Shown here: positions 1,247 through 45,900 of the stretch, piece after piece
Layout: each line of letters begins with the position of its first letter
How positions within the stretch are numbered: the first letter of the stretch is position 1
Source: Paenibacillus aestuarii
GTDB taxonomy: Bacteria > Bacillota > Bacilli > Paenibacillales > NBRC-103111
Direction of reading: 5' to 3'
DNA: 64,000 nt
NCBI RefSeq assembly: GCF_027789125.1
Contig: NZ_JAQFVF010000005.1
Span: forward strand, 62,001-126,000
Position numbers and translations under genes: made by a program
Notes under the pieces: generated by a model
The model's input: only the letters and a program-made list of their open reading frames with translations
What the model was told of the DNA's origin: nothing
The model's database searches: none

Positions 1247-2215
1247 TTAATTTTTCTCAAGGTAGATTCTCTTGATTCTACTAAACAATTCTTCGTTTTC
1301 CTTTATATGAATACCATAATTTCTAGTATAATTGGGATGAATGTATTGTTTTGTTATACTCATATCTTGATGTCCCAACAATTGTTGAATCAATGGCAGT
1401 TGAACACCTGATTCGTATAATACAGTGGCGAATGAATGGCGTATGCCATGGATACGAAATTTTCCAACTCCTGCTTTTTCACAACAACTATCAAGAAGCT
1501 TTTTTAGATGATAAGGGGTCATTGGCTTTTCATTAGCTTGTCTAAATATATAATCCTTGTCATTAATCCTTTCTAATATACAATATCTTTTTATAAGTGT
1601 TCCCATGTTTTCCATCATGGCAACGAAGCGCTGCCTTCCGTTTTTTGTGTTGACTAATTTAAAGCTATTGTTATCATAATCTATTTGCCAAACTTGTAGT
1701 GATAAAATTTCAGACCGTCGACATCCAGTTGAAAATAAAAGACAGAATAGAAGTAGGTCTCTAACTAAATTTTCGCTTTGCTGTACAAGAACATGGTGAA
1801 TCTTTAATATTTCGTGTCGAGTTAATGCTTTCGATTGCCGAATGGTTGGTTTTATATCATCTAAATTAAATGTCATATTTAATAATGGATTTTTAAAATG
1901 GTAATTGCGTTCTAAATAGCGAAAAAAGCTACTTAAAAATTTACGGGTTTGTTTTAACATAGAATACGTTGACGATAGAGTATGAAAATATTCGTCAATA
2001 ATTCGATGATCCAAGGGTTTATATGTCACAATTTCCCCGTTTTTATCCTTTAAAACATAAATGCGTTCCAAATCTATTTTTTCTTTGGGGAGAGCCAGTT
2101 TATATGCTAGAAATTCTGCGAAATGAAGAAACTTTTTGCGGTAGGCTTGATCCGTTCCAGATGAGTATCGCGCTTGTTTGAAAAAATTAGCGGCATCACT
2201 AATAAGCATGCGCAT
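1247..2215 (-). CDS. Tyrosine recombinase, third gene of recombinase trio
   Basis: Phage-integrase family site-specific recombinase of 322 residues, normal length for the XerC/D-like group. It has an N-terminal SAM-like core-binding region ('YSSGTDQAYRKKF') and a C-terminal catalytic domain. Catalytic signatures are visible: first Arg in 'STGCRRSEILSL', H-x-x-R in 'IHGIRHSFATV', then 'LLGHQDMSITKQYIH' carrying the late His and the nucleophilic Tyr. A good Shine-Dalgarno (GAAAGGAGC in transcript sense) supports the ATG at 2215. It is last in a minus-strand series of three recombinases, 55 bp after the previous gene. In RIT (recombinase-in-trio) elements three such genes act together in movement of the element; that role is inferred from the arrangement. 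Confidence 0.85.
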   Translation of the reverse strand: MRMLISDAANFFKQARYSSGTDQAYRKKFLHFAEFLAYKLALPKEKIDLERIYVLKDKNGEIVTYKPLDHRIIDEYFHTLSSTYSMLKQTRKFLSSFFRYLERNYHFKNPLLNMTFNLDDIKPTIRQSKALTRHEILKIHHVLVQQSENLVRDLLLFCLLFSTGCRRSEILSLQVWQIDYDNNSFKLVNTKNGRQRFVAMMENMGTLIKRYCILERINDKDYIFRQANEKPMTPYHLKKLLDSCCEKAGVGKFRIHGIRHSFATVLYESGVQLPLIQQLLGHQDMSITKQYIHPNYTRNYGIHIKENEELFSRIKRIYLEKN

Positions 2216-2270
2216 AAAAGTGCTCCTTTCAATGTTAGTTTCTAAATTATTTTCCGTCTCCAGTACGAAA

Positions 2271-3359
2271 TTACTCGCTTTTTAGAACTTGAAATAATAA
2301 TTTGTTAAAAGCAAAAGGGAATTTTTGGGTCAGTACTTCTCCGAGGTCCTGTGGCAATAGCTGCAAATAAATGTAGGTTGTTTTCGGGTCAGTATGTCCA
2401 AGAATTTGGCTAAGGTATTCGATTTTCATACCTGCCTTTAAGCAATTAACAGAAAACGTATGGCGAAGGCTGTGTGGAGTATAATATTCTTCAAACCTTA
2501 GTTTACTGCATAGGCGCCGAAACATTTTTTCAATGCCTGCCTTTGTTAAGGGGATTCTACGTTCTTCTCCAAAATCTTTTGCGAATAGAAACCCTGTTAT
2601 ATTTTTACTCCAGACTCTTATCCCTGTAAGATTTAGATAATCTAATATAATATTTTCGACTTCTGGAAATATGGGTACGTAACGATCTTTATCTCCTTTT
2701 CCTCCACGAACATGTATTATTTTTTTTTCGATATTAAAATCACATGTTCGGAGTTTAACAAGTTCACTTATTCGCAATCCTGTTCCTACTAAAAAACTTA
2801 GAATAGCATGACTTCGATATCCATTAATTAATTGAAGGGAAGCTCGTAGAAGTTCATCCAGTTGAGAGTTTGGTAAGTATCTTGGGAGCAATGGAGGTTT
2901 GGTCCAGTCAAAACGCTTACTAATATCCCTGTTGATAAACCCCTTATCCTTACAATAAGCAATCAGTCCCTTGATTATTGCGGTATAGGTGTTTATCGTA
3001 TATGTAGATAGGGATGTTGTCTTTCTGGATTTACACGTCTCGAGGAAATTAAGTACAACTATTTCATCTAAACGTAGTACTGTTAGATCTGAATGAAAAG
3101 TCTGAATGAAGTTATTTAATCGTTGTAGCACGTTTCGGTAACTTTCAAGGGTACGAAGAGATCTCTTTTTGCGTAGAACGAGTAGCTCAAGGTTTTCCAA
3201 AAATTTAGGAATAGCTTCGGAAATCAAAATATCCTGTTCCAGTTCAAGCATCTCATGATTATTTCTATTGTTAATAAAATTCATTAAATCATGTAGTGAA
3301 ATACCTAAATCTTCACAGACCTTGTTTAAGTCGTAGTCTAAAGAAACTTCAATGCTCAT
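2271..3359 (-). CDS. Tyrosine recombinase, second gene of trio
   Basis: Site-specific recombinase of 362 residues. The catalytic domain shows 'GTGLRISELVKLR' (Arg I), 'TPHSLRHTFSVNC' (H-x-x-R) and 'ILGHTDPKTTYIYL' (His and Tyr nucleophile), so all key residues appear present. The N-terminal half carries the SAM-like DNA-binding fold ('LRTLESYRNVLQRL'). Its ATG directly abuts the TAA of the upstream recombinase (TAAATG), indicating translational coupling; the site AAGGGG lies within the end of that gene. Size (about 360) is close to TnpA of Tn554-type elements, but the partners differ in size and order, so I call it RIT-like rather than Tn554. Confidence 0.85.
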   Translation of the reverse strand: MSIEVSLDYDLNKVCEDLGISLHDLMNFINNRNNHEMLELEQDILISEAIPKFLENLELLVLRKKRSLRTLESYRNVLQRLNNFIQTFHSDLTVLRLDEIVVLNFLETCKSRKTTSLSTYTINTYTAIIKGLIAYCKDKGFINRDISKRFDWTKPPLLPRYLPNSQLDELLRASLQLINGYRSHAILSFLVGTGLRISELVKLRTCDFNIEKKIIHVRGGKGDKDRYVPIFPEVENIILDYLNLTGIRVWSKNITGFLFAKDFGEERRIPLTKAGIEKMFRRLCSKLRFEEYYTPHSLRHTFSVNCLKAGMKIEYLSQILGHTDPKTTYIYLQLLPQDLGEVLTQKFPFAFNKLLFQVLKSE

Positions 3360-4958
3360 TTAGTGGTTCCCCTTCGTCATTGGATTGTAAGGTAGGGTGT
3401 GAGATAACAATGTAGGGATACTGCGGTATAAATAATGCATGGTCGAACACCACTTTTTGTGCCCCACCGATTCAGAGACAGCGTTAAAATCATTTCTGTT
3501 ATTTAAAGCGTCAGTGATGTAGGTGTGTCGAAATGACTTTGCTGAGAATTTGGTTTCACTAAAAGCAACTTGATTATATTTTCTAATCATGCAACTTATT
3601 ATTTGTGTATTTATTGGTGCGTCAAAACGAGTAACAAATAAGGGTGCATGAGGGAGAGTATGGGCTCTTTCAGTCTTAATAAAGTCCGAAAGGACGCTTA
3701 TCACAAATGGTGTTACTTTTAAGGTTCGTGTACGTGATTTTTTTGAAAAAAGTGAAATAGTGTGTTCTTTGATATCAATGTCTATTATTCTAAGTGTACT
3801 TATTTCAAGGGGACGGCAACCTGTTTCAATAAATAGTAAAACGATACAGAAGTCCCTTTTGCGGTTTTTTACTGATGAGTTTAGTATATATGTGAGGAAA
3901 TTTTCGCGGCTTTCGACGTCAACATATTCATTGTCTCGTGTCAACTTTGGACGAAACTTTTCCGGAACTACATATTGAAATGAAATATAGTCGTTTCTAT
4001 ATAGAAAATTTATAAATCTTCTAATATGGTGTAATATTGTAAAGGCTGAACACTGCTTGATTTCTTCGAATAAAACTCGCTGCATAAGTATAGATTCAAA
4101 AGTTTGAATATGACGAGGATGTAATGATTCGATATTCTTCGATACTTCGTTACCTAAATGACGCAAAAACATTCTGATTTGTACAATAAAAGAGGCAATT
4201 GTTAAATGATTTTTATCAACAAGTTCCTCAATAAATTTTCGGAACGCTGTGCAACCCAGGTCATCGAATAATGGATATAGTGGGTTGGCTATCGGTTTTT
4301 CTAGTGTAAAAACAAGATCTTTAATTCTTGCTAAAAATCTAAAATACAAATCTAGACTAAATAAACGTTGGTGATACTCATTGCGTTTTAGCTTGTTTGC
4401 AAGTACAAGTTCATAAAGGTATCGTTTATATTCCTTTAACCCATATGTTAGTTTTCCTTCGAATAATTCATTATTTATTATGTTTCTTGCAATACAATAA
4501 AAAAAGAAGCTCAATATATTCTCCTCATGTCGCTTTTCGTATTTAATGCCAATAGTCCTAATAAATTCTATAAATTCATTAGTGTCAGATTGACCTGGAT
4601 TTTGAGGAATGCCATTAAGCTCATCTGCGTTGTTTCTTTCATTGAATAGTTCTTGTTTATAGTAGTTGTTTGTTCTACGTGAATTCAATCCAGAAACCAA
4701 TGCATATTCAATATTTGAAGAAGAGGATTTTGAAATAATCTCTTGGGATATCTCCACTGAACATATTGTTGGATTTAAAAGTTCTTTGCAGCGAGCGTCC
4801 AAAAAGATATTAAATTTTTTATAGTCTCGACTGATCTTCAGTTTTGCAAGCGTAAAAACCTCATCTCTTATTGCTTTATTTTGCAAATCTGATACTGTTG
4901 CGGAAGTTAAGAAAGTCATAACAACCTCGTTCGATTCGATGAACTGAAATTCACTCAT
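3360..4958 (-). CDS. Large tyrosine recombinase, first gene of trio
   Basis: A 532-residue member of the tyrosine recombinase family with a long (about 330 residue) N-terminal region before the catalytic domain. Catalytic motifs: 'IETGCRPLEISTLRI' (Arg I), 'SAKSFRHTYITDALN' (H-x-x-R-like: F-R-H-T) and 'VGHKKWCSTMHYLYR' (late His and the probable Tyr). The H-x-x-R box is atypical: Ser-Phe-Arg-His instead of His-x-x-Arg, so the first His may be replaced by Lys or Ser. The ATG at 4958 has AAAGGGGA upstream in transcript sense. It is first in the three-gene operon and abuts the next recombinase. The long N-terminus may bind the structured upstream region (inference). Confidence 0.8.
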   Translation of the reverse strand: MSEFQFIESNEVVMTFLTSATVSDLQNKAIRDEVFTLAKLKISRDYKKFNIFLDARCKELLNPTICSVEISQEIISKSSSSNIEYALVSGLNSRRTNNYYKQELFNERNNADELNGIPQNPGQSDTNEFIEFIRTIGIKYEKRHEENILSFFFYCIARNIINNELFEGKLTYGLKEYKRYLYELVLANKLKRNEYHQRLFSLDLYFRFLARIKDLVFTLEKPIANPLYPLFDDLGCTAFRKFIEELVDKNHLTIASFIVQIRMFLRHLGNEVSKNIESLHPRHIQTFESILMQRVLFEEIKQCSAFTILHHIRRFINFLYRNDYISFQYVVPEKFRPKLTRDNEYVDVESRENFLTYILNSSVKNRKRDFCIVLLFIETGCRPLEISTLRIIDIDIKEHTISLFSKKSRTRTLKVTPFVISVLSDFIKTERAHTLPHAPLFVTRFDAPINTQIISCMIRKYNQVAFSETKFSAKSFRHTYITDALNNRNDFNAVSESVGHKKWCSTMHYLYRSIPTLLSHTLPYNPMTKGNH

Positions 4959-6866: not shown

Positions 6867-6899
6867 AAACCTTCTTGTATAAAAACAAGGAGGTTTTTT
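6867..6899 (+). terminator. Terminator-like hairpin that contains the next gene's ribosome site
   Basis: AAACCTTCTTGT (6867-6878) pairs with ACAAGGAGGTTT (6885-6896) with one mismatch, followed by Ts. The 3' arm contains AAGGAGG, the Shine-Dalgarno of the ATG at 6902. On a read-through transcript the ribosome site would be sequestered, while a transcript starting inside the loop would expose it. Confidence 0.6.
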
Positions 6900-6901
6900 A
6901 T

Positions 6902-7204
6902 ATGTTAGTTGATAAAAAGTTAAGGCAAACATTGCTCGAAATACTTATAGCATGGGAAATGGAGTTGCTAGAAAAAAATGATACACCTTGCGAACTTATA
7001 ACTTCTAAAGTAGAGAACAATGATGGAAAGATGCCAACCAAGGTTATCCTTTCAGTAAAGGAACTGTCAGTGTATCTGGGGATATCACAGGATTGCTTGT
7101 ACGCAATGGTAAGAGAGAATCAGATTCCATTCATCCGGGTTAGGAGAAGAATTTTATTTTATAAAGAATCGATCGATGCTTGGTTGAAGAAACAGCAGCC
7201 GTAA
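6902..7204 (+). CDS. Excisionase-like HTH DNA-binding protein
   Basis: A 100-residue protein with a C-terminal MerR/excisionase-type winged helix ('ILSVKELSVYLGISQDCLYA' then 'IPFIRVRRRILFYKESIDAW'), the HTH_17 pattern used by Xis proteins and small regulators. The N-terminal 45 residues are helical and acidic, possibly for dimerisation. Start ATG 6902 is set by AAGGAGG at 6888-6894; an in-frame codon at 6875 lies in the terminator hairpin and has no ribosome site. In this context it is a likely recombination directionality factor or regulator for the adjacent tyrosine recombinases; that is inferred from family and position. Confidence 0.8.
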   Translation: MLVDKKLRQTLLEILIAWEMELLEKNDTPCELITSKVENNDGKMPTKVILSVKELSVYLGISQDCLYAMVRENQIPFIRVRRRILFYKESIDAWLKKQQP

Positions 7205-7783: not shown

Positions 7784-7952
7784 GTGGAGGATTATGTAAA
7801 ACTTTGTAGAAACAATAGGGAATACATTCCAGAAAATATTGGCAACTGGATTATGGATAATACAGAACCTAAAACGGGCTGTTATCGGTTCAAAAATTAA
7901 AAATGATTATTATCAGAAAGATATAGAATATTTAGAATCTCATTTTTTATAA
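7784..7952 (+). pseudogene. Short protein-like ORF with a probable frameshift
   Basis: A GTG at 7784 opens 38 codons ending at TAA 7898 ('EYIPENIGNWIMDNTEPKTG'). A second frame, +1 relative to it, continues as 'KIKNDYYQKDIEYLESHFL' and stops at 7950-7952, 18 bp before the helicase start. The composition is protein-like, and the A-rich junction at 7892-7905 could be a frameshift. It may be a remnant of a small gene of the downstream operon. Weak evidence; the region 7533-7970 otherwise shows no gene. Confidence 0.25.
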
Positions 7953-7970: not shown

Positions 7971-10900
7971 ATGCAGGAGTTAATCAAGAATTTTTGCGAG
8001 GAAAAAGACACAGGCATATTTCTTATTGATATGCCAACAGGCTTCGGAAAAACTTACAATGTCCTTGAGTTCATAACTAATTATTATGATCGAGTAGAAG
8101 GGAAAATTTTGTTTCTGACCACACTAAAAAAGAATCTCCCTTTTGATGAGCTTCGAGAACACTTTGTGAAAAAGGGGATCGGTGATAGATTTGATGAACT
8201 ATGTATAAAAATTGAAGCTAATGCTAATGGCGTAATTCTTAACCTCATGTATGTATACAAGGATATACCGCAACGCTTTAAAGATAGTAAAGAGTACCAC
8301 GATTTATTTAATGCTGTTAAGCTTGTACATGAATGGACCAACAAAAAAAAGGATGAGACGATATCCGCTATTGTCAAAACTACGGAAAAAGCTATCATTG
8401 AACAGTATGAAAGGGCCTTTCGTGTTTTAATTGAAAAGGATTTAAAAAAATTTTCGAAACCTGTTGAAAGGTTATTGCAGATCAAGACAAATCGAGAGTA
8501 TCAATGGGTTGGGAAATTGTATCCTGCAGTATTTACAAAAGATAAGAAGATATTGTTCATGTCTATGGATAAGTTTTTGTTAGGAAACTCCACACTAATC
8601 GAGCCTACCTACAGCTTCTATAATAATCCCATAATTGATAAGGCAGTTGTTTTTATTGATGAGTTTGACGCGACAAAAGATACCATATTAAAGAGGATTA
8701 TTGATAAAGGGCTAGAGAATCGTGTCGATTATCTCAATCTCTTCAAGCAAGTGAATTCTGCCCTTAGTACTAGAGAATTCCCACACCAGTTATTAATTGA
8801 TTCAAAGAAACAAGATGAGTATAAGCAGAACAATCCTAGAAAGAAAATGAACTCCAGTGCAGCAATTGTTTCAGGTTTTCAGGAAATCTTCAGTGACACG
8901 TACAAGAAGTTTAACATCCAGTATAGTTACAAGACATCGGGAAGTGTTGAAGATAAAAAGCGTAACTTTATCTTTAATGATTTGCAATTTCACTCTGTAT
9001 TTTCCGGGGGAAATTCATATATAGGCATTGAAAGTGATGATGTAGCAAAACAGAATTGGATTAAGTTTCTCAAGACAAAACCAGAGAACGTTGATGGCGG
9101 AATTATTTATCTTCTATCCAGCGTTAAAGGATGTATTTCTTATTTCCAAAAAGGTTGTAGTAGGCTGGCCTATAACTATAAGAATGTGGTGGATGAAGGA
9201 AAACGTCTTGGTGATGATGATTTTACTTTAGAGCAGGCAATTAATTCGTTACTTTCTGAATTTCATTTATCAAGAGAATATGTTCGATATTTGACTTCAC
9301 ATATTTTATCTGGCCAGAGAAGTAGAAAACAGAAGGCGAAGAATGATAAGTTATCTATCGACTTCTTTGATATGTCAATTTATAATCGAGGTTTTCGTTA
9401 TTTCGACTTTATTGATGAGCCAGAGCATAATCTTCAATCGAAGATTATGGTCTATGATTTTCCGGATACACCAGAAAAGTTTCTTGTGAACATAAGTGAA
9501 CGGGCAAAGGTGATTGGTATATCTGCTACTGCATCTTTAGATACCGTCATTGGAAATTATGATGTTTCGTATTTAAAGAAGGCTCTTGGGGATGGTTATT
9601 ATGAGATGTCTTTCAAAGATAAACAACGCCTAAATAAAAAGTTTCAGGACTTTATTCAGGGCTATGAGAATGTAGACATCTATGTGGAGCCAGTGGGCTA
9701 TTGCCAGAGCATTGAAACGGAACTTATGGAGATATTTTCAAGTAAAGACTTCGCGAAAAAATACAAAGAGAAACTCGAAAGACAATATCAAGGGTACGAA
9801 TATGCCATGGAAAACTTCATAAAAGTTCTAAAGGCATTTAAAGCATTTATTTGCAATGATGATCTGCAGTCCTTTTTGTGCTTAACAAATAAGTTAGCAA
9901 AAGAAGGTAAAAGCCTTTTCGATCTAAAACTTTTGAAAGAAATAGGTGACCATATTATAAGGATATGTAACAAACCATATAAGATAGATTCGGTTATGGT
10001 ACAAATTGATAGTGATGATTTTGATACCAAAAAACAGAATCTTATTTCTAGACTTAAAAATAATGAAAAAGTATTTGTACTATCAGCTTATCAAACCCTT
10101 GGAGCAGGACAAAACATCCAATATCCAATGCCGGTAAACAAAAAATTCGTCACTATAAACGAATTCGCAAGAGGTAGAGGAGAAAAAGATTTTGATGGTA
10201 TATACCTTGAGAAACCAACAAATCTTCTTGTGAATATTAGAGAAGGATTAGAAGAAGAAGAATTAGTTAAGTATATTTATCAAATTGAGTTCTTAATGGA
10301 ACGTGGAGAACTTTCATTGGTAGAAGGAATTAGTCTGATAAAAGATGCATTTCGTTCTTTCAGTGGAGTGAAGAACAATTTCACTGGATTCAAGGCGAAT
10401 GTTTATGGAAGCAAATCGGTCGAAAATTATGCACTTCGAGTACTTATTCAGGCGGTTGGTCGCTTATGTCGCACCGGTATTAAGAACAAGGAAATCTGTC
10501 TTTATGTTGATGAAAGCATCTTTAGAATGAATTTTCAAATTGAGGACGATCGTTTACTGAATCCGGAGTTTGCAAAGATAGTAGAAAAGCGAAGATCTTA
10601 TTGTGAAATAAAAGACGAAACATACGAAACAAAGAACACCTATGAAAATAATGCCAATACTCTTTCAATTAAAACGGTGCATATCATTAAAAATCTGATG
10701 CGAAAGTGGGATGAGAATAGTATTGAAATATGGAAAGAACTACGCAGTGTATGTCTTAAGCATCCAACAATGTCAGAAGATGGGCTTAGAAGAATGCCAT
10801 GGGCACAAAACTTATATATCAAGGCTCCAACGAAGATCAATGGTTATACATATACACAAGAAGATGATTACGAAAAGAACATTACCATTAAATTTGATGG

Positions 10901-11438
10901 GAGTCTAAAGCAAGTGGTGTCTGAAAACGATGTGAGATTGAATTTGCTCATGCGGATACCTAGGATAAGGGAGCATTTTATTCAAATGGATTATGCTACA
11001 GAGTTCATAGCTAATGAATATTTCCTTACGCCTCCACTATATAACAACATTTACAAAGGAGCTTTAGGTGAAGTAATTGGCAAATTTTTATTGAAGGAAT
11101 ATTGGCATCTTGACCTAAAGGAAATTGATAATGAGGAAATCTTTGAGTTTTTTGACTTTAGATTAGGCGACGATATCTATATTGACTTTAAGCTTTGGAA
11201 GGAGACCAATTCATTTGATGCCGAAGAGCAAAAGAATAAGATTATTAAGAAGCTGGAAGCCTGTGGTGGAAAACGTGCAATTATCATTAATATTATGGCT
11301 GATGCATCTAACTATAAAATTACAACTAGTGGAGATGGTAAAATTGTAGAAATCCCACTGCTATGTGATATACGTACGGGAAAATTAGATCCAACCATCT
11401 ATGAACAGATTAGACATGGAGGTTATTTTACATGTTGA
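7971..11438 (+). CDS. ddmD: DdmD-like SF2 helicase with C-terminal PD-(D/E)xK nuclease
   Basis: A 1155-residue protein. The N-terminal superfamily-2 helicase has Walker A 'MPTGFGKT' (residues 21-28), DE box 'VVFIDEFD' (D230, E231), motif III-like 'IGISATASLD', 'VLSAYQTLGAGQNIQYP' and motif VI 'IQAVGRLCRTG' (around 826-836). The C-terminus carries a PD-(D/E)xK nuclease: 'GALGEVIGK' (E1034), then 'RLGDDIYIDFKLW' (D1067/D1068, D1072, K1074). Helicase-nuclease of this size directly followed by a roughly 690-residue Argonaute-like gene matches DdmDE, where the Argonaute-like DdmE recognises plasmid DNA with a DNA guide and recruits DdmD to unwind and degrade it. Start ATG 7971 has GGAGTG upstream. 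The 3' end overlaps the next gene by 7 bp. The match is by architecture and motifs, not by a database search. Confidence 0.72.
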   Translation: MQELIKNFCEEKDTGIFLIDMPTGFGKTYNVLEFITNYYDRVEGKILFLTTLKKNLPFDELREHFVKKGIGDRFDELCIKIEANANGVILNLMYVYKDIPQRFKDSKEYHDLFNAVKLVHEWTNKKKDETISAIVKTTEKAIIEQYERAFRVLIEKDLKKFSKPVERLLQIKTNREYQWVGKLYPAVFTKDKKILFMSMDKFLLGNSTLIEPTYSFYNNPIIDKAVVFIDEFDATKDTILKRIIDKGLENRVDYLNLFKQVNSALSTREFPHQLLIDSKKQDEYKQNNPRKKMNSSAAIVSGFQEIFSDTYKKFNIQYSYKTSGSVEDKKRNFIFNDLQFHSVFSGGNSYIGIESDDVAKQNWIKFLKTKPENVDGGIIYLLSSVKGCISYFQKGCSRLAYNYKNVVDEGKRLGDDDFTLEQAINSLLSEFHLSREYVRYLTSHILSGQRSRKQKAKNDKLSIDFFDMSIYNRGFRYFDFIDEPEHNLQSKIMVYDFPDTPEKFLVNISERAKVIGISATASLDTVIGNYDVSYLKKALGDGYYEMSFKDKQRLNKKFQDFIQGYENVDIYVEPVGYCQSIETELMEIFSSKDFAKKYKEKLERQYQGYEYAMENFIKVLKAFKAFICNDDLQSFLCLTNKLAKEGKSLFDLKLLKEIGDHIIRICNKPYKIDSVMVQIDSDDFDTKKQNLISRLKNNEKVFVLSAYQTLGAGQNIQYPMPVNKKFVTINEFARGRGEKDFDGIYLEKPTNLLVNIREGLEEEELVKYIYQIEFLMERGELSLVEGISLIKDAFRSFSGVKNNFTGFKANVYGSKSVENYALRVLIQAVGRLCRTGIKNKEICLYVDESIFRMNFQIEDDRLLNPEFAKIVEKRRSYCEIKDETYETKNTYENNANTLSIKTVHIIKNLMRKWDENSIEIWKELRSVCLKHPTMSEDGLRRMPWAQNLYIKAPTKINGYTYTQEDDYEKNITIKFDGSLKQVVSENDVRLNLLMRIPRIREHFIQMDYATEFIANEYFLTPPLYNNIYKGALGEVIGKFLLKEYWHLDLKEIDNEEIFEFFDFRLGDDIYIDFKLWKETNSFDAEEQKNKIIKKLEACGGKRAIIINIMADASNYKITTSGDGKIVEIPLLCDIRTGKLDPTIYEQIRHGGYFTC

Positions 11439-13513
11439 AGTCAATACGGACAAATAAAATATGTGCGGAGTTTTCTTTACAGAACATTCAGAGGGATTTT
11501 GACATTTATAAAATTACAACAACTGAAAAGTATATTCCTGGCGGCGCTTATCTATTGGATAAGCCGTTAATAAAAGCTAAATCAATCGTGTATGAATATG
11601 GAAAGAGCTTTTATATACTTTATACGAAAAATACGATGATGGTTAATGACCTGAAAAAAAGCCTACAGCCAGAAGAAAAAGGAGATACCTTATCGTTTGA
11701 GTGTATACGGGTAGAGAAGATACCGAAGCATTTGCTAGTTCAACTTTTCTTAAACAGTATAAACAATCCCAACAATGAGTTATTGTCCTTCAATAACCTC
11801 ACAGGAAAACTGATTTGTTATCGAAATGATTGGATTAATACAGATAAGAAGAATTTTATCTGGGGACTTGATTGTTTGGAACTTAAGATTGGAAATGATA
11901 TGTGTTTGCATTTATTAGCCCATCGATTGTCCGCTTATGCCTTGAAGAATAAGATGGAATTTAAGAAAAGACGAATTCATGAATACCCGCAGTATAATTT
12001 TACAGACCATAACCATACCTTAAAGCGTGCTGATAAAAAGGAATTAAATCGAAGCGAAAACTTTATAATGAAGCCAGTGGAAGGCGAACGAGGAGGAATC
12101 ACATATTTAAATTTTCAAGATCAGGAAAAATTTGAATACACTAAGATAGGTGTTCTTTATAACATATTATCGATTCTAAAAAATGAATATAATGAGTATT
12201 TAAAAGTTGACTTTGAAAAATCTGTAGTTAGTAAGTGTCTCGAGTACAAGAAATCAGACTTGAACAAATTCAAAGATGTCGTAAATAAATTGGTCTTATC
12301 TAATGGTATTATGTTACTTGATGGTGTTAAGGATGAAACATCAGAATTATATTTAAGAAAATTGAGAGAACGTCTAGAAGCGGTATTTCCTGCGGTAGAA
12401 GTATCCGTGGGAAAACATGTATCTAAACAGAAGTTAAATATTAAACTGATTCATCATAAAGCCTACTATGAAAAAATGACCCACGATCCTCATAATGACA
12501 TCCATGAAGGCGCGGCGGTTCAACACATAACACTAGAAAACTTTAAATTAGCTGCAGATGCAGCTGTAGAGAATGTATTAAAAGAACTGGTCATCAAGAA
12601 AGACCTAATTAACAGAAAAATCTCATTGGTGGACTGGCGAAGTTACGAATATCAAAGTGACTGGATATTTGGAATACAAGATGGTGGGAAATATTATTTT
12701 ATGACAGTTCATCCAGATGGTACGTTTGAAATAAAACGAATGAAACGTAATTTATTTAATATATCCGATTATGATAAGTATATGGACTACTTAGGTAATA
12801 ACGCAGACACAAAAAAGCATGACTATCGTCAAGCAATAGGTTTGGTTAGAGATGTGGCAGGTAATATTAATATAATTAGTGATACGAATCAGATAACTAT
12901 GCCGGAAGTTTCGACACTTGGCGATTCTCTGGTACTTGCAGCAAAAGACGTAAAGTTTCCAGGAAATTATATAATAAATGTAATAGAACGATTGATTCAG
13001 TCTGGGGATGCGCATGATAAATATTTAGATATATTAACAGAAGCTAAAGACCGCTTTGTAGCAGATGAAGAGTATGATAAAACCTACATTACGAGTATAG
13101 TAAAGAACAAGTCGGCAAGAAAGGTATTAACAGATTTTGTTTATGAAGATACCGGTGAACTTCTTTACTTGTACCTTAGAAATCAAGAAAAGAGAAATGT
13201 GCTGTTTTCTGGTTTACTAGATATTAATTACAGTCAAATAGATTCTCGAGAAGCTATTTTTAACGTTGGAATTGTAGGGGCCGGAATGCAGACATTTATG
13301 GAACGTGCAAGCGTGATACGTAAGGTCGAAGCTGTCGATGATGGGGAATTATTCTTTGAAGAGCTGTTACCATTAATGGGTGTTGAGTTTGTCCGATATG
13401 GCATGCTAACTGTAATGCCATTCCCATTTAAGTATTTAAGAGAGTTCTCATTATTGGAAGGTAGCTTAATAGAGTCACAAGCTTTGAAAAAGGAGTTGTT
13501 TTCTAGTATCTAA
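11432..13513 (+). CDS. ddmE: DdmE-like (Argonaute-related) protein
   Basis: A 693-residue soluble protein, the size of DdmE-type prokaryotic Argonautes. It starts at ATG 11432, with GGAGG (11418-11422) inside the helicase gene, so the two are translationally coupled. Overall alpha/beta make-up and a conserved-looking MID/PIWI-like block 'HDPHNDIHEGAAVQHITLEN' (from H351), followed by 'LVDWRSYEYQSDWIFGIQDG', suit a pAgo fold. I see no clear DEDX catalytic tetrad, consistent with the inactive PIWI reported for DdmE; the nuclease is supplied by the partner. Role: guide-directed recognition of invading plasmid DNA (known for the family, inferred here). Alternative: an unrelated partner of the helicase-nuclease. 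Confidence 0.65.
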   Translation: MLKSIRTNKICAEFSLQNIQRDFDIYKITTTEKYIPGGAYLLDKPLIKAKSIVYEYGKSFYILYTKNTMMVNDLKKSLQPEEKGDTLSFECIRVEKIPKHLLVQLFLNSINNPNNELLSFNNLTGKLICYRNDWINTDKKNFIWGLDCLELKIGNDMCLHLLAHRLSAYALKNKMEFKKRRIHEYPQYNFTDHNHTLKRADKKELNRSENFIMKPVEGERGGITYLNFQDQEKFEYTKIGVLYNILSILKNEYNEYLKVDFEKSVVSKCLEYKKSDLNKFKDVVNKLVLSNGIMLLDGVKDETSELYLRKLRERLEAVFPAVEVSVGKHVSKQKLNIKLIHHKAYYEKMTHDPHNDIHEGAAVQHITLENFKLAADAAVENVLKELVIKKDLINRKISLVDWRSYEYQSDWIFGIQDGGKYYFMTVHPDGTFEIKRMKRNLFNISDYDKYMDYLGNNADTKKHDYRQAIGLVRDVAGNINIISDTNQITMPEVSTLGDSLVLAAKDVKFPGNYIINVIERLIQSGDAHDKYLDILTEAKDRFVADEEYDKTYITSIVKNKSARKVLTDFVYEDTGELLYLYLRNQEKRNVLFSGLLDINYSQIDSREAIFNVGIVGAGMQTFMERASVIRKVEAVDDGELFFEELLPLMGVEFVRYGMLTVMPFPFKYLREFSLLEGSLIESQALKKELFSSI

Positions 13514-14198: not shown

Positions 14199-15950
14199 TT
14201 ATCCATCTGAATTAGCGCTACTCTGTCTTCTTAGATTTTTAATGGCAAGACTGAGGTTCTGTTCGTTTTCTGCATTACTCCATTCCTCCCAAAACTTTAC
14301 TGAACCAGAATTGGGTTTGTATTCAGGCTCTTGGATTTTGATTCTGCTTGGCAATAAACAGGAATCTCCGACAACAATTGCTTCACCAACCCCTAGTGTT
14401 GGTAATTGGTCCTGTATTCCACCAAGATTTTCTGGAAGTAAGTTTGAAACGGCATTTTTGTCCGATTGATTTGAAAGTCTAAGCGCTACTACATTATTAC
14501 ATTGACTCATGACAGTTGTATTTAGCTCAGATGGGCGCTGGCTGATGATAAGAAGGCTTACTCCGTATTTTCGTCCTTCCTTCGCAATTCTTTCAAAATG
14601 CGCTAAAGCCCTTGCCTCAGCTGCATCAGCTGCTAAACGATTAGGTAAATATAAGTGCGCCTCATCGCAAACAATTGCAATGGGATGCCTTGTTGAACTG
14701 TCAGACCATTGCTGTATTTGGAATACTAGTCTTGCTACTAAACTAAGAACAATAGGTAAGATATCAGAAGGTACTTCACTAAAATCAATTATTTTAACAC
14801 CCTCGTTTTCTTTGGTATTAGCCTTCATTAAACTTTCGACTAAATAATCCAAATAATTAACAGCAAGTTGTTCTTCTTTCAATGAAAATAAAAATCCATG
14901 TCTACGATCACTTCTTTTTGAGGCGAGACGAGGGAGGAAACGATTAAATTTTCCATTAAATGGACCATTGATCAAACCGTTTTTTCCTTGAACTTTACCT
15001 TCGTTCAACTCTGTAATATCATTAATAACATCATCTAAACTGTACGGAACAGGACTATCTATTGTGAATGTCTCTAATTCTTTCTGCATGTCTTCTTTTG
15101 TCAATTCCTCTTTTTTTGCTTTAATGACTGCATTGCTAAAAGCCATCGCCTGATTCGGTGCATTTTCATCGCTTCTATCCAGAATTAATGCCAGCATATC
15201 CTCATAACCGAGCAACCAGTATGGTAAAAAAAGTACGTCTTCATTAGGATTATCTAAATCCGCAGGCCCAGCAATTCTATATCTTTTAATATGAGGATGG
15301 ATCGATAATGGTTCATATTCGCCGTGCAAGTCAAATACAATCATATTGGAATTTGTAAGACCTGCAACTTGTTCTACAATCTTAGCAACCGTCCACGATT
15401 TACCAGAGCCAGTTGAACCAACAACCATAGCGTGTCTTTGGAAGAAGGCATTACCATCTAAAATTGCAAGTGCATCAGAAGCCATAGTATAGGTGCCTAA
15501 TGTTAAAGGAGTTTTAGATTTTGCTGTCTCGTCTGCGATTAATCCAGTAAAAAGAGTTAGGTACCCTCCAAGAAGTAAAAAGCATTTTGCGCCAATTTCA
15601 GGTAAATTTTCGACTGCACGAGTAAATTTTGCAGTCTCTCTTCCCCCCCCCGGTCCTTTTAATGTACCCAAAGCGTTTACAGTGATGTCATTATTAGTGT
15701 TATTTTTTTCTTCATCGGTATCGTCGTCATAATTATTCGGCTCGTATTCAAGCCTTACAACTCGCTCAATACGTCCAATTAACCGAGTATTAGGATCAGA
15801 AGTATGCATTATTACATAACCGTTAACGTTAACTCTTCTAAGTTTTTCTTCGTCTGTAGTGAAGATATTGACGCTATAGCTATCAACTTTATTTACGAAT
15901 CCAATAAACTGCTCATCTGCAATGTTAAACAGATCTAGACACTGTTGCAC
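14199..15950 (-). CDS. HerA-type ATPase/DNA translocase (SIR2-HerA defence partner)
   Basis: A 583-residue FtsK/HerA-family hexameric ATPase. It has an N-terminal HAS-barrel-like region (residues 1-150) containing an acidic, Asn-rich linker, Walker A 'GSTGSGKS' (178-185), 'VFDLHGEYEPL' around 205-215, and Walker B 'IAIVCDEAHLYLP' (D429, E430). A sensor/arginine block 'RKYGVSLLIISQRPSEL' follows. HerA paired with a SIR2 gene forms the SIR2-HerA (Nezha) anti-phage complex, in which HerA assembles with SIR2 and NAD+ is consumed on infection (family knowledge). GTG start at 15950 with GGGGAG upstream; it overlaps the SIR2 gene by 26 bp, so it is second in the operon. A run of nine G's in the coding strand (15643-15651) lies in the linker and could slip. 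Confidence 0.85.
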   Translation of the reverse strand: MQQCLDLFNIADEQFIGFVNKVDSYSVNIFTTDEEKLRRVNVNGYVIMHTSDPNTRLIGRIERVVRLEYEPNNYDDDTDEEKNNTNNDITVNALGTLKGPGGGRETAKFTRAVENLPEIGAKCFLLLGGYLTLFTGLIADETAKSKTPLTLGTYTMASDALAILDGNAFFQRHAMVVGSTGSGKSWTVAKIVEQVAGLTNSNMIVFDLHGEYEPLSIHPHIKRYRIAGPADLDNPNEDVLFLPYWLLGYEDMLALILDRSDENAPNQAMAFSNAVIKAKKEELTKEDMQKELETFTIDSPVPYSLDDVINDITELNEGKVQGKNGLINGPFNGKFNRFLPRLASKRSDRRHGFLFSLKEEQLAVNYLDYLVESLMKANTKENEGVKIIDFSEVPSDILPIVLSLVARLVFQIQQWSDSSTRHPIAIVCDEAHLYLPNRLAADAAEARALAHFERIAKEGRKYGVSLLIISQRPSELNTTVMSQCNNVVALRLSNQSDKNAVSNLLPENLGGIQDQLPTLGVGEAIVVGDSCLLPSRIKIQEPEYKPNSGSVKFWEEWSNAENEQNLSLAIKNLRRQSSANSDG

Positions 15951-17040
15951 TAATATCAGCTCCCCATGCTTGATTTAGTAATACTTTTAATGTCCAATGC
16001 TCAGGCTCATCGGTTATAAATGGTTCGAATACGTCGCTTATCACTTGGCTACCATTTTCGTATTTTTGGACGGCGATGAAGTTTTTTATTTTTTTGCTCT
16101 CAATTAGTTCCTTGGCGTTATCAGAAAGTCCCATTGCTAATATGACTTTTTTTACTGAGTCACTTCGAAGAATAGAATCAAAATTCCCTTGAATATGCAA
16201 ATCATTAAATCCAAAGCCCACAAAAACAAGAGCTTTACTGCTATCTAATACCTGTTTCATTTCCGAGAGTACAATGTTATAAGGCTCTTTATGTGTTTCT
16301 AGATATTTTCCTATTCCAGGGGTAACTATAGTCGGAATGATCTGAATCCTCCCTAACATTGGAAGTAAATGATTCCCAATACCTTGCACTTTTTTAACTT
16401 GACCATCAGGAAATTTAAACCAGCTTAGTGAACCATGGGGTTTATAAATTCTTAGATGTTGGTGTCTTCTAGTCACAGGTTTCTTTCCAACTATTGAAAC
16501 AATCTTCATTCTCTCATTTAATTCAGAGACAGAAAGAGGTGATCCAATAGATCCTTCGTGGAATCCATCCCAGATTCTCCATCCAGAATTTGATGCGGAC
16601 CATTCTATCAAATGATCATAATTTGTTGTGATAATATGTATTATTTCGGTATTCGAGTTTTTAAATTTATTAAAATAGCGTACAAATCCAGTTGGATCGT
16701 TATCGTTTGAGATATCAAGAATCAGTTTTTGTTCATCATTCGAAATACAACACCAAGTCTGTTGGATAATTTCTTTAAGAAGTTGCTTACTGATAGCATC
16801 GCCAGAATCTTGAAGTGCCTCTTCTAATCCTTTATTTTCCGTGATAAGTCTACTCTTAATTTGCTCCCATTCGTTTAAATCATCCTGCTCAAACTTGTCG
16901 ATATTTACATTTTGGATCAAGTATGTAGCCAATTTTCCCATCCCTGAAATTCCAGCACCAGCTGAGAGACCACTTCCTACAATAAAGACAGGGTTTAATT
17001 TTATAATGCTCTCTATGTATTCGACATAAGCTTTTTTCAT
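15925..17040 (-). CDS. SIR2-family NADase (SIR2-HerA defence)
   Basis: A 371-residue SIR2-domain protein. NAD-binding signatures are 'IVGSGLSAGAG' (residues 20-30), 'TTNYDHLIE' (138-146), 'KPHGSLSWF' with the catalytic-type His at 202, and 'LVFVGFGFND' near 280. Defence SIR2 proteins hydrolyse NAD+ to cause abortive infection. The C-terminus (about 310-371) is variable. Start ATG 17040 has AAGGGGAA eight bases upstream. It is first in a two-gene operon, overlapping the HerA start. Family and pairing are clear; anti-phage activity is inferred from homologous systems. Confidence 0.87.
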   Translation of the reverse strand: MKKAYVEYIESIIKLNPVFIVGSGLSAGAGISGMGKLATYLIQNVNIDKFEQDDLNEWEQIKSRLITENKGLEEALQDSGDAISKQLLKEIIQQTWCCISNDEQKLILDISNDNDPTGFVRYFNKFKNSNTEIIHIITTNYDHLIEWSASNSGWRIWDGFHEGSIGSPLSVSELNERMKIVSIVGKKPVTRRHQHLRIYKPHGSLSWFKFPDGQVKKVQGIGNHLLPMLGRIQIIPTIVTPGIGKYLETHKEPYNIVLSEMKQVLDSSKALVFVGFGFNDLHIQGNFDSILRSDSVKKVILAMGLSDNAKELIESKKIKNFIAVQKYENGSQVISDVFEPFITDEPEHWTLKVLLNQAWGADISATVSRSV

Positions 17041-18785: not shown

Positions 18786-19237
18786 TCTTGGGACTATATA
18801 TCAAGCCTGACGGTAAGCTTAGCTTGTTCGTGTTGCAATACCAGTTAACAATGAGAGTGTGCAGACGCTCAGTAACTTCAGTATTGGTTAATTTGGAAGA
18901 TACGGAAAGCATTGAAGCGGCCTTATTGAAACATAAGAGAAGGTGAGGGGTCCGCTTCCAACTTTAGAACCTTGAGTCGATATGATCTACAGAACTTTCC
19001 GCCGCTAACATATTCTTTGGGACTCTGCGGTGTGGTTATCTCTTTAAATTCAAACCATTTACTCAAGAACCATGGAGACTTTTTATGTAGTACTTCCTGT
19101 AGCTTTATATCATCAACTGATGGTGAATAATATTCTGTTTGAAAAATGCAATCCTTGTACTGATGTATCTTGTATGGGGAAATTATGCTCTAGTTTGCAG
19201 TGACAACACATTATTAATTAATAAAGGCGGTATTTGC
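18786..19237. other. Intergenic stretch upstream of the RES gene
   Basis: No convincing gene. An in-frame extension of the RES gene runs back to 19139 but lacks a ribosome site. No clear promoter could be assigned. Confidence 0.45.
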
Positions 19238-20473
19238 TTGGGACATTCTAAGAGACTGTTAGAACGCGAGATGCTTTTCCATTCGAATGGAGATAAACAT
19301 CTTTGTTCAGATTGTGTTGATGATTATGCACTTAAAGAATATATTGAATCCAATGGTAATGAAGGATTCTGTGATTATTGCGAAAACGAAGACACAAATG
19401 TAGTTAGTTTTGATGACTTTATGGAATTTTTCTTGGAAGGTATTGATTCAGAATGGGATCAACCGGGAAATTGGATGGGTTATGATGGTAGAGAAGGCGG
19501 TTGGCAAGGTGCCGATGTTTATGATGGTTGGGATCTAATTGATGCACTTGATCCGTTTTCGGAAAACGATGATTTAATAACTGACATAAGGTCAGCTTTG
19601 GTTGATAGAGAATTTTGTGAAATAGATCCCTATTCTCTTAGAAGAAACCAAGAAGATTATTATAACTGGCAGCAGTTTTCTGATCAAGTAAAATATAAAA
19701 CAAGGTTTGTGTTTTATAGAGTGGAAAACCCTCAACATGACCCATACGAGCTCTCCCAACCATATGAAATTTTAGACAGAATATGTGATTTGGTTTCTGA
19801 TCTAACGTTATTTAGTGTAATTCCGAAGGGAGAAGTAATCAAACGATTTCGCAGACATAATGAAAATGAATATTTCGACAGCTACAAGGATATAGGTCCT
19901 CCTTCTAAGGGGAATGCGAAATTTTCGAATAGAATGAGTCCTGCAGGAATTCCTATGTTTTACGGATTTTTTGATCACAATGTACCTTTAAAGTATTGGT
20001 ACAAACACATGACAAAGAACAAAGGAACGTTTGAAAATGCTGTAACAATTGGTTTCTTTGAAAGTGTAAAGGATTTAAAAGTTATGGATTTAACATCATT
20101 ACCACCAGTTCCAAGCATTTTCGATCAAGATAATCGATCTAAGAGGATGGGAATCATCTTTTTAAGATCATTCTTGGGGGATTTTAGTAAAGAAGTAAAA
20201 AAAGACGGCTCGGAACATATTGATTACGTTCCTACTCAAATTTTTACTGAATATTTTAGACATATTTATCGGACGCCAGATGGTGATCCATTGTATGGAA
20301 TTATCTACCCAAGTTCTATGATGGATGGGGTGGTCGAATGCGTTTTATTTTTGGATTCAGATAATTGTATGCAAGATAATATACCCCCAGATAATAATGA
20401 AATATATGAAATATTACCAAAAGAAAAAATTCTGTCATTATTATCAGATAAAACCGAGAGACATGTTTTTTAA
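19238..20473 (+). CDS. RES-domain protein with zinc-binding N-terminal domain
   Basis: About 411 residues. I place the start at TTG 19238, since AAAGGCGG (19223-19230) sits seven bases upstream and the resulting N-terminus 'LGHSKRLLE' matches how this family begins; a longer frame from 19139 is less likely. The N-terminal domain has a paired-cysteine site ('HLCSDCVDD' then 'GFCDYCENE'), as in HEPN/RES N-terminal proteins. The C-terminal RES domain shows 'VFYRVEN', 'GNAKFSNRMSPAGIPMFYG' and 'DYVPTQIFTEYFRH', with the Arg/Ser/Glu-rich pocket typical of the family. RES toxins degrade NAD+ by phosphorolysis, so this may be an NAD-depleting effector. It is followed 24 bp later by a small two-helix membrane protein. 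Effector role is inference. Confidence 0.78.
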   Translation: MGHSKRLLEREMLFHSNGDKHLCSDCVDDYALKEYIESNGNEGFCDYCENEDTNVVSFDDFMEFFLEGIDSEWDQPGNWMGYDGREGGWQGADVYDGWDLIDALDPFSENDDLITDIRSALVDREFCEIDPYSLRRNQEDYYNWQQFSDQVKYKTRFVFYRVENPQHDPYELSQPYEILDRICDLVSDLTLFSVIPKGEVIKRFRRHNENEYFDSYKDIGPPSKGNAKFSNRMSPAGIPMFYGFFDHNVPLKYWYKHMTKNKGTFENAVTIGFFESVKDLKVMDLTSLPPVPSIFDQDNRSKRMGIIFLRSFLGDFSKEVKKDGSEHIDYVPTQIFTEYFRHIYRTPDGDPLYGIIYPSSMMDGVVECVLFLDSDNCMQDNIPPDNNEIYEILPKEKILSLLSDKTERHVF

Positions 20474-20497
20474 TAATTATTATGATTGGGTGAAATT

Positions 20498-20968
20498 ATG
20501 AGCTCTAATGAAAAGGCAAAGTTTTTGCAACAGGAAATTCAAGATATGATTCTCTTTTTTCAAAAACGGAAAAGAAGAAATAAGAAAAAAGCGTTTTATA
20601 TAAAATTATTAACTATAATTTGCTCTGCTTTAATTTCTGTACTTTTAGGGCTAAAAGATATTAATGCAGGAAACTTGTTGGTGAACATATCGATTGGACT
20701 GGGAGCGTTTATTACAGTTCTTAATTTTATAGAAAGCTTTTATAATCATAAAGAACTTTGGATAAAAGAAGCAAAAGCTCACATTGAACTTCTTGAGCTA
20801 AAAACGAATATCGATTTTTATATTGTTGGAGAAGATAATTCTAATATAAAACTGACAGACCTTGAGAAATTTAAAGATAGATTTAATGAAATTATTAATA
20901 CTAATGCGAATAATTGGGCTAGTATGCATCATAAGACAACTAATAAAGAGGATTCTCATGAAAAATAA
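20498..20968 (+). CDS. SLATT-like (DUF4231-type) two-helix membrane protein
   Basis: A 156-residue protein. A basic N-terminal helix ('FFQKRKRRNKKKAFYIK') is followed by two hydrophobic segments, 'LLTIICSALISVLLGL' and 'LLVNISIGLGAFITVLNFI'. Next come 'FYNHKELWIKEAKAHIELLE' and a soluble C-terminus. This is the layout of SLATT/DUF4231 membrane proteins, which are predicted pore-forming effectors beside nucleotide-signal or toxin genes. Start ATG 20498 is preceded by a weak GGGTG; an upstream in-frame TTG (20486) is possible. It sits 24 bp after the RES gene and probably shares its transcript. Function in this pair is not known. Confidence 0.62.
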   Translation: MSSNEKAKFLQQEIQDMILFFQKRKRRNKKKAFYIKLLTIICSALISVLLGLKDINAGNLLVNISIGLGAFITVLNFIESFYNHKELWIKEAKAHIELLELKTNIDFYIVGEDNSNIKLTDLEKFKDRFNEIINTNANNWASMHHKTTNKEDSHEK

Positions 20969-21794: not shown

Positions 21795-21836
21795 GAAGTA
21801 AGTTTGCGTCGCAAGCCTACGACGCAAACTTACTTC
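21795..21836. repeat. Perfect 17-bp inverted repeat with 8-nt loop
   Basis: GAAGTAAGTTTGCGTCG (21795-21811) is the exact complement of CGACGCAAACTTACTTC (21820-21836). No T-run follows on either strand, so it is not a standard terminator. It lies between decayed genes and the zinc-ribbon nuclease; it could be a MITE relic, protein-binding palindrome or structured leader. Confidence 0.75.
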
Positions 21837-21974
21837 ATTACTAAGAGCGCGATAAAAACATACTTTCTTTATTCGTGTTTTTTTGATGCTCGCGAGTATT
21901 CGGAGCAATTAATATTCGTTGAACCGCATGAATCAGTCGTGATTTTGAATAGCGTTTACGAAAGGGGGAGAGAC

Positions 21975-45114: not shown

Positions 45115-45273
45115 TCAAGGCTTCAGCTGACTATAACAGTCTCTACAAAACTCGCGTTTTGACTCGCATACGGTGCATGTAGGATCGGCGGCGCTACTTG
45201 TACGGGATGAAATGTACGCATCAAAATTAGCTTGCCACTCCACACTTAATATCTGCCACTGAGCAAAATAAGC
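45115..45273 (-). pseudogene. 3' remnant of a small Cys-rich protein gene
   Basis: On the minus strand an open stretch reads 'YFAQWQILSVEWQANFDAYI', then 'CTVCESKREFCRDCYSQLKP' and stops at 45117-45115. The paired C-x-x-C suggest a zinc knuckle. A stop precedes the stretch and there is no start with a ribosome site, so it looks like a broken gene; a GTG at about 45238 could give a 42-residue product. Confidence 0.35.
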
Positions 45274-45278
45274 TTACC

Positions 45279-45585
45279 TCAGAGCCGATCGAAATCAGGC
45301 ATTTGTCCTGATATTCGATCGGCTTTTTCTTTTCGAGAGCGATCTACCAGGTTGATAAACCCATCATCCGTCGTGGCAACTTTAAACCCTGATTTAATCT
45401 CAATTCTCTAGTTCTGATGATTAAGAGCCCAAATCAAACCCCTTGCCAATTCTATGTTTTCTCCTTTTGGTACCTCTCCAATTGTTTACACAGTTTTTTC
45501 GCAATCCGATCTCTAATTATTCTTCTCAAGCTTGGTAAATGCTTCCCCTAAGCGTTTACCAAATCTAATTCGCCTCCCAAACTCA
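45279..45585 (-). pseudogene. Decayed helical protein gene
   Basis: Minus-strand pieces in different frames read 'FGKRLGEAFTKLEKNN', 'RDRIAKKLCKQLE' and 'KGENIELARGLIWALNHQN'. An in-frame TAG follows, then 'EIKSGFKVATTDDGFINLVD' and a final piece ending 'PDFDRL' at the stop 45281-45279. This is clearly protein-like but broken by at least one stop and two frameshifts. Family unknown. A palindrome (45283-45324, AGCCGATCGAA/TTCGATCGGCT) lies in its 3' end and is followed by Ts on the plus strand. Confidence 0.45.
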
Positions 45586-45900
45586 GTCCTCCAAGGGCAT
45601 TTCTCTGCCCTCCGCGTCAAACTTATTCTGCTTTGACAGATTGGAGAATGGGACGGCCAAACGCAATATCCGCCAAATTTACTCCCTATTTTTTCAATAA
45701 CTACTCTATTTACATGAAATTATCCCCTTTTAACAATCTGCTCACAATCTTTTAAATCTTTGATAACACAATTCAAATTTCGAAAACAATGCTCTTGAAT
45801 TGCTCACAATGTTTAATACTTTGAAAACAGACAATTGCACTTTCCTGTCGTACCATGACAATAGACAGCAGAACTAAGCAAACTATCGAAGGTGAATATG
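45586..45900. other. Upstream region of the polysaccharide operon
   Basis: AT-rich leader with several TTGAAAA-like motifs; a promoter for the following long operon should be here, but no -35/-10 pair with good spacing stands out. No gene. Confidence 0.4.

What the first reader, a model, noticed from the sequence alone, without database searches (positions are those of the whole stretch)
7971..13513. DdmDE-like helicase-nuclease / Argonaute operon in a Gram-positive island
The 1155-residue SF2 helicase has intact Walker A, DE box and motif VI. A C-terminal nuclease (E1034, D1067/68, D1072-x-K1074) is fused to it, and it overlaps a 693-residue Argonaute-like gene, reproducing the size, order and coupling of DdmDE, which clears plasmids in Vibrio. 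Next to a mobile recombinase segment this may be a plasmid/element-exclusion module, possibly a divergent branch.
Basis: partly seen in the sequence, partly recalled or inferred. Interest (0 to 1): 0.75.

Follow-up and report, generated by a model that had tools for sequence, protein, structure and literature searches.

The report
DdmDE plasmid-clearing operon in mobile island
The two genes are an intact-looking copy of DdmDE, a known bacterial system in which a catalytically dead Argonaute guides a helicase-nuclease onto plasmids, here carried on a mobile chromosomal island with other defence genes; it is a new member of a known family.

Summary
Window 7971-11438 encodes DdmD and 11432-13513 encodes DdmE. 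DdmD finds L. casei DdmD (3e-59) and V. cholerae DdmD (4e-46) in the PDB; DdmE finds L. casei DdmE (4e-9). A DdmE profile without gammaproteobacteria finds only DdmE chains in the PDB (2.8e-67, 1e-41). AlphaFold models of both (pLDDT 87.5, 86.6) match DdmE (Z 27.6; best other Argonaute 12.0) and DdmD (3e-57). Helicase and nuclease residues are kept; no acidic catalytic set is conserved in PIWI.
One genome scan gave 69 loci from Bacillota, Bacteroidota, cyanobacteria, spirochaetes, gammaproteobacteria and archaea; 67 of 69 have DdmE right after DdmD. The window copy sits in a Bacillota/Treponema branch, apart from the Vibrio-like one.
It lies on a ~59-kb island at the 3' end of rlmD: integrase, repeated rlmD end, an empty site in one congener, and the same integrase with Ssp cargo in another. 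No match in 29 other congeners. New member of a known kind; plasmid elimination is inferred.

The parts
7971..11438 (+). ddmD: SF2 helicase with C-terminal PD-(D/E)XK nuclease, 1155 aa
   Evidence: PADLOC DdmD 7.2e-46; PDB L. casei DdmD 9ix4 3e-59 and V. cholerae DdmD about 4e-46; AF2 model Foldseek 3.3e-57 to DdmD
8034..8054 (+). Walker A, residues 22-28 (PTGFGKT)
   Evidence: K27 in 64 of 65 rows
8658..8669 (+). DEFD box, residues 230-233
   Evidence: D230, E231, D233 in 65 of 65 rows
10449..10472 (+). helicase motif VI, residues 827-834 (QAVGRLCR)
   Evidence: Q827, G830, R831, R834 in 65 of 65 rows
11070..11192 (+). nuclease core, residues 1034-1074 (E1034, E1059, D1062, D1072-x-K1074)
   Evidence: all five in 65 of 65 rows
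11432..13513 (+). ddmE: long-Argonaute-like guide protein, 693 aa, overlapping ddmD by 7 nt
   Evidence: PDB L. casei DdmE 4e-9; family profile 2.8e-67 and about 1e-41; AF2 model Z 27.6 to DdmE
6875..7204 (+). HTH_17 / excisionase-like DNA-binding protein upstream of ddmD; link to the operon not shown
   Evidence: HTH_17 8.1e-13, TIGR01764 2.7e-14; no homologue in the other loci held then
1247..4958 (-). three tyrosine recombinase genes (322, 362, 532 aa)
   Evidence: Phage_integrase Pfam hits
14199..17040 (-). HerA (14199-15950) and SIR2 (15925-17040), a neighbouring known defence pair
   Evidence: PADLOC HerA 2.4e-225, SIR2 1.8e-195
45165..45212 (+). right island junction: copy of the 3' end of rlmD (att-like repeat)
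   Evidence: 16-bp exact repeat with the left junction; 81-83% over 48 bp to rlmD 3' ends of two congeners

Best explanation
This is a complete DdmDE module. By homology, DdmE, a catalytically dead long Argonaute, loads short single-stranded DNA guides, finds matching plasmid DNA and opens the target. It then recruits DdmD, which is held as an inactive dimer. DdmD loads on the displaced strand, translocates 5'-to-3' and cuts with its PD-(D/E)XK domain, so the plasmid is lost. Shown here: gene order and overlap, both folds (as predicted models), kept helicase and nuclease residues, absence of a conserved acidic PIWI set, purifying selection, and carriage on an integrated island. Taken from the characterised V. 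cholerae system: guide loading, recruitment, translocation and plasmid loss. Inferred from context only: it helps island and host keep rival plasmids out.
For: Sequence matches to DdmD and DdmE. Profiles without gammaproteobacterial rows: a 34-row DdmE profile finds only DdmE in the PDB; 54-row DdmD and 56-row DdmE profiles reach Aliivibrio L071 at 7.6e-115 and 1.6e-42. Folds. Motifs. Operon kept in 67 of 69 loci, overlapping in 65 of the 68 with both genes detected. Selection.
Against: No functional data. DdmE is only 16-18% identical to the solved DdmEs; the single sequence does not reach V. cholerae DdmE significantly (E 0.8); Pfam, PADLOC and NCBIfam give nothing for it, and NCBIfam nothing for DdmD. 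Both AF2 alignments contained four gammaproteobacterial rows. Guide and target preference may differ. No conserved regulator or convincing promoter was found at the window copy.
Confidence: 0.95

Rival explanations
1. Same machinery, but the main target in this host is not small plasmids: it acts on phage replicative forms, integrative elements in their circular stage, or large plasmids.
For: The copy sits among Druantia-type and SIR2-HerA genes, and three plasmid records carry a DdmD relative themselves, so not every plasmid can be a target.
Against: The mode described in the review read here is plasmid elimination, mainly of small plasmids (passages of PMC12409362). No match in the phage records and one confirmed locus in the viral-contig scan give no link with phages either way.
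Confidence: 0.2
2. A decayed or silent passenger of the island.
For: Several relatives have DdmD or DdmE split in pieces (L044, L055, L061, L062, L075, L076, L077), though assembly errors are not excluded; promoter-like sites are no more frequent than in shuffles.
Against: Both window ORFs are open, the key residues are kept, and pN is far below pS.
Confidence: 0.05
3. An unrelated helicase-nuclease plus Argonaute pair (DinG- or Cas3-like helicase with another pAgo) that only resembles DdmDE in size and order.
For: Weak DinG and Cas3 hits (PADLOC 1e-4 to 1e-2); DinG and XPD are the next folds.
Against: DdmD wins by about 40 to 50 orders of magnitude in E-value and DdmE by 15 Z units.
Confidence: 0.01

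Closest known systems
Lactobacillus casei DdmDE (PDB 9ix4, 9iw3, 9ixm)
   Same: Closest solved relative by single sequence: DdmD 3e-59 over residues 12-1137, DdmE 4e-9; same folds.
   Different: 18-21% identity. Its sequence was not fetched, so it is not in the tree and its distance to the window's branch is not placed.
Vibrio cholerae DdmDE (PDB 8u0j, 8u3k, 9ezx, 9ezy, 9bf1, 9bgk)
   Same: Helicase plus C-terminal nuclease, dead Argonaute, on a genomic island among other defence genes (passages of PMC12409362).
   Different: 16-20% identity; V. cholerae has a WYL protein gene upstream (VC1772), the window does not.
Copies in Clostridiales MAG GWB2_37_7 (L012), Coprococcus catus (L013), Carnobacterium maltaromaticum (L043), Treponema bryantii (L014)
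   Same: Nearest branch: DdmD 69, 50, 48 and 42% identity; starred set of 5 rows with the window.
   Different: No gene near the window copy has a homologue beside these four in the stretches held, at E 1e-4.
Catalytic long Argonautes (T. thermophilus Ago and others)
   Same: Overall Argonaute fold, Z about 11-12.
   Different: No conserved acidic set in the PIWI half of 69 DdmE rows; the only acidic residue kept in at least 85% from residue 395 on is E671.

Membership tests
DdmDE | DdmD: SF2 helicase with Walker A, DExD and motif VI | tested here: met
   K27 64 of 65; D230, E231, R831, R834 65 of 65 rows; match to DdmD 3e-59
DdmDE | DdmD: fused C-terminal PD-(D/E)XK nuclease | tested here: met
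   E1034, E1059, D1062, D1072, K1074 in 65 of 65; D1072-x-K1074 aligns with a D-x-K of V. cholerae DdmD
DdmDE | DdmE: long-Argonaute fold, closest to DdmE | tested here: met
   AF2 pLDDT 87.5; Foldseek 1.4e-39; Z 27.6. The model's alignment held four gammaproteobacterial rows; the profile held none.
DdmDE | DdmE PIWI catalytically inactive | tested here: met
   From residue 395 on only E671 is an acidic residue kept in at least 85% of 69 rows. By conservation only; no enzyme assay.
DdmDE | DdmE binds DNA guides by their 5' end through MID | tested here: inconclusive
   Q364 66 of 69 and K389 69 of 69 fit the usual Ago pocket (recalled, from no call); binding not testable here
DdmDE | Two-gene operon, ddmD then ddmE | tested here: met
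   7-nt overlap in the window; 67 of 69 loci adjacent
DdmDE | DdmD autoinhibited dimer, recruited by DdmE | not testable with these tools
   Described for V. cholerae (passages of PMC12409362)
DdmDE | Eliminates plasmids | not testable with these tools
   Needs a plasmid-stability assay

The most novel reading that the evidence does not exclude
DdmDE is largely a weapon of mobile elements against one another rather than a host system: the module rides on an rlmD-integrating island here, and directly behind parA-parB or near replication and segregation genes on plasmid records elsewhere (Persicobacter pPP11, Lactobacillus intestinalis), so carrier elements use a DNA-guided Argonaute to evict competing plasmids while sparing themselves.
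Probability: 0.3. Interest if true: 0.55.

Novelty: new member of a known kind. Interest (0 to 1): 0.3.

Why it matters
It adds an intact-looking DdmDE in a Bacillota chromosome and a family-wide view: the tree rows fall in six phylum-level groups, including cyanobacteria and archaea (Methanosarcina, Methanoperedens), with a PIWI half that keeps no acidic catalytic set. Carriage on an island with an empty site in a congener, and on plasmids, asks how the carrier escapes its own Argonaute, which bears on how DdmE tells plasmid from chromosome.

Tried and rejected
A conserved third operon gene was sought by clustering the neighbouring ORFs of the loci. Apart from recombinase-type genes, none of 13 window neighbours has a homologue in the loci held then; only one Clostridia-rich branch has a recurrent partner, a WYL regulator. 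The 288-aa protein upstream of ddmD and the HTH_17 protein had no homologue in those loci, and the 288-aa protein none in plasmid records. A short open frame just upstream of ddmD (about 7800-7951) has no convincing homologue in the loci held (best E 0.84). Promoter and terminator scans were no better than shuffles (22 found, 31.7 expected; 3 found, 3.5 expected). Rfam found nothing in the window at gathering scores. No phage record matched; the viral-contig scan gave one copy, 24% identical. A literature search with min_terms 2 returned unrelated papers. Three primary DdmDE papers (PMC11614852, PMC11795196, PMC11649018) are not held, so I cannot say whether the wide distribution is in print. 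What I saw of the literature: passages of the review PMC12409362, passages of PMC12904381, PMC12205087, PMC12287153 and PMC12259885 and search listings with abstract starts.

Rows dropped or added before counts: duplicate or partial loci L001, L005-L008, L011, L070 and L081 were left out; DdmD ORFs under 1000 aa and DdmE ORFs under 500 aa were left out; five DdmE rows (L003, L021, L049, L076, L080) were put in by hand, and a few DdmE rows are from interrupted genes (L044, L055, L062). L077 was left out of the tree. No L. casei sequence is in any alignment.
Full report
Observation. Two open reading frames lie at 7971-11438 (1155 aa) and 11432-13513 (693 aa) on the plus strand and overlap by 7 nt. 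Neither has an internal stop. G+C at 8-14 kb is 33-35%, while 46-64 kb is 46-55%. I take it for a Bacillota because a genome listed as 'same phylum' (G172) has a DdmDE contig of the same length, 25,676 bases, as Pseudoflavonifractor sp. An44 (L070); that is an inference.

Identity of the first protein. PADLOC's only strong hit is DdmD (7.2e-46, residues 297-1114). The six PDB sequences hit are L. casei DdmD (9ix4, 3e-59, residues 12-1137) and five listed as 'Helicase/UvrB N-terminal domain-containing protein' at about 4e-46, whose entries are titled as DdmD structures, V. cholerae where the title names a species. A 42-row profile reaches V. cholerae DdmD at 2e-283 and L. casei at 2e-163, but holds four gammaproteobacterial rows. 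A 54-row profile without them still finds Aliivibrio DdmD (L071) at 7.6e-115. The AlphaFold2 model (pLDDT 86.6, pTM 0.88) matches DdmD at Foldseek 3.3e-57, with query TM-scores of 0.73-0.81 over the first 20 rows; DinG follows at 8e-9.

Identity of the second protein. Pfam, PADLOC and NCBIfam are silent. The single sequence finds L. casei DdmE at 4.2e-9; V. cholerae DdmE scores only 0.8. A profile of 34 DdmE rows without gammaproteobacteria finds four PDB sequences, all DdmE: L. casei 2.8e-67, V. cholerae about 1e-41. The AlphaFold2 model (pLDDT 87.5, pTM 0.86) matches DdmE at 1.4e-39 and at Z 20.9-27.6, whereas the best other Argonaute is Z 12.0. The alignment behind the model held four gammaproteobacterial rows, so the model is not independent of Vibrio-like DdmE; the profile is.

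Active sites. On 65 DdmD rows: K27 64, D230 65, E231 65, D233 65, Q827 65, R831 65, R834 65, E1034 65, E1059 65, D1062 65, D1072 65, K1074 65. D1067/68 are not among the conserved positions. On 69 DdmE rows the MID-side positions Y346, D352, Q364 and K389 are kept in 66, 69, 66 and 69, which fits a guide 5'-end pocket (recalled). From residue 395 on the only acidic residue kept in at least 85% of rows is E671. Against the nearest relative L012, pN is 0.17 (DdmD) and 0.23 (DdmE) with pS near 0.75, saturated.

Family. One scan of genome contigs with a six-row DdmD alignment gave 142 pattern matches and 69 confirmed loci. The pattern was a single motif, so this is a sample. DdmE follows DdmD in 67 of 69; the other two are a contig end (L067) and a DdmE split in two (L077). 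Of 68 loci with both detected, 65 overlap. The DdmD tree of 64 rows (quick IQ-TREE, SH-aLRT only, several long branches and warnings) holds Bacillota 23, Bacteroidota 15, Cyanobacteriota 8, Pseudomonadota 7, Spirochaetota 3, Methanobacteriota 3 and 5 rows in no group. The window is sister to a Clostridiales MAG (100*) within a starred set of five with Coprococcus, Carnobacterium and Treponema. The mix of phyla suggests transfer. Three of 72,556 plasmid records hold a DdmD relative: Nostoc pn2; a Lactobacillus intestinalis record near a replication-initiation gene and an ATPase annotated to chromosome segregation; and Persicobacter pPP11 immediately after parA- and parB-type genes. The L. intestinalis ORF as annotated lacks the Walker A stretch, so it may be truncated or wrongly started. 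PLSDB types all three as non-mobilizable. No phage record matched.

Distribution near the host. DdmD was found in 1 of 30 genomes of the genus, 1 of 104 of the family, 1 of 398 of the class and 5 of 398 of the phylum samples, the window's own genome being counted in each. Of the four others in the phylum sample two are full-length (G414, G172) and two weak; one of the weak ones (G375, L011) proves a very divergent DdmDE pair with family profiles. This points to acquisition by transfer.

The island. Left of the window on the same contig a tyrosine integrase (L082:6299-7480) abuts the 3' end of rlmD (TIGR00479, 6.8e-169). A 16-bp exact direct repeat links the rlmD end (L082:6003) with window 45165. 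The 48 bp at window 45165-45212 resemble rlmD 3' ends of two congeners at 81-83%. In congener G006 rlmD and the window's right flank are neighbours: L082 4648-6027 matches L116 1678-3054 and window 45663-47988 matches L116 3688-6012, leaving 633 bp between them where the window's genome has 59,635 bp. Congener G014 has an integrase of 93% identity at rlmD but, behind it, SspB, C, D, F, G and H homologues and no DdmD match. Among 29 congener loci with about 1.5 kb of flank, integrase matches near rlmD appear in 5 (L085, L089, L097, L102, L108) and the right-flank gene in 1 (L087, that is G006). So rlmD looks like a hotspot where related integrases carry different cargo. In the window's genome the island holds Druantia-type genes (DruF, DruL, DruE, DruK-like), three tyrosine recombinases, DdmDE, HerA and SIR2 and a PDC-S26-like gene, HEPN/RES, a SLATT protein, transport and sugar-metabolism genes and a Fic protein. 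Whether it is one element or several nested ones is not settled.

Regulators. V. cholerae has a WYL-domain gene upstream of ddmDE (VC1772; passages of PMC12409362). Here homologues of one WYL/WCX protein lie directly upstream of ddmD in 8 loci (L010, L037, L044, L045, L049, L050, L053, L060); Pfam was run on two of them. Seven belong to one 9-row branch of the tree whose other two rows (L038, L040) hold too little upstream sequence to tell. A WYL gene lies divergently upstream in Aliivibrio L066, a WCX-domain regulator just downstream of ddmE in Carboxylicivirga L035, and a HFX_2341_N gene divergently upstream in Methanoperedens L021. The window has no WYL hit; its upstream HTH_17 protein is excisionase-like.

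Mechanism. As in Best explanation. Steps from guide loading onward are taken from the V. cholerae system as described in the review passages seen; none was tested here.

Novelty. DdmDE, including a Lactobacillus one with solved structures, is known. This is a new member. I make no claim that its wide distribution is unpublished: three primary papers I asked for are not held and the only searches made are.

Corrected: Walker A coordinates, profile E-values, identity ranges, the G+C statement, the scope of the WYL and hotspot counts, the tree's left-out rows, and an unsupported remark on Lactobacillus copies, which was removed.

Noticed in passing
L082:6003-6073 and window 45165-45663: rlmD 3' end looks like an integration hotspot in this genus: ~59-kb island here, empty site in G006, same integrase with Ssp cargo in G014.
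   Followed up: yes
L082:8181-18056: Druantia-type genes (DruF, DruL, DruE, DruK-like) on the same island, left of the window.
   Followed up: partly
L037:6876-7871 and homologues in L010, L044, L045, L049, L050, L053, L060: A WYL/WCX regulator sits directly upstream of ddmD in 8 loci of one Clostridia-rich branch; WYL genes also adjoin ddmDE in Aliivibrio L066 and V. cholerae.
   Followed up: partly
L004:2275-10364: On Persicobacter plasmid pPP11 (46 kb) ddmDE follows parA- and parB-type genes directly: a putative anti-plasmid system on a plasmid (pair confirmed by profiles).
   Followed up: no
L011:6637-13324: A very divergent DdmD (1458 aa) and DdmE (774 aa) pair in a genome of the same phylum, recognised with family profiles (2.5e-35 and 3.6e-24).
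   Followed up: no
window 19139-20968: HEPN/RES-domain gene followed by a SLATT-domain gene, possibly another defence or toxin-like pair.
   Followed up: no
window 21804-23948: 714-aa protein with seven DUF4379 treble-clef stretches and a weak DUF2726 / mREase_II-like segment.
   Followed up: no
window 1247-4958: Three adjacent tyrosine recombinases of 322, 362 and 532 aa, resembling a recombinase trio (name recalled); ends not mapped.
   Followed up: no
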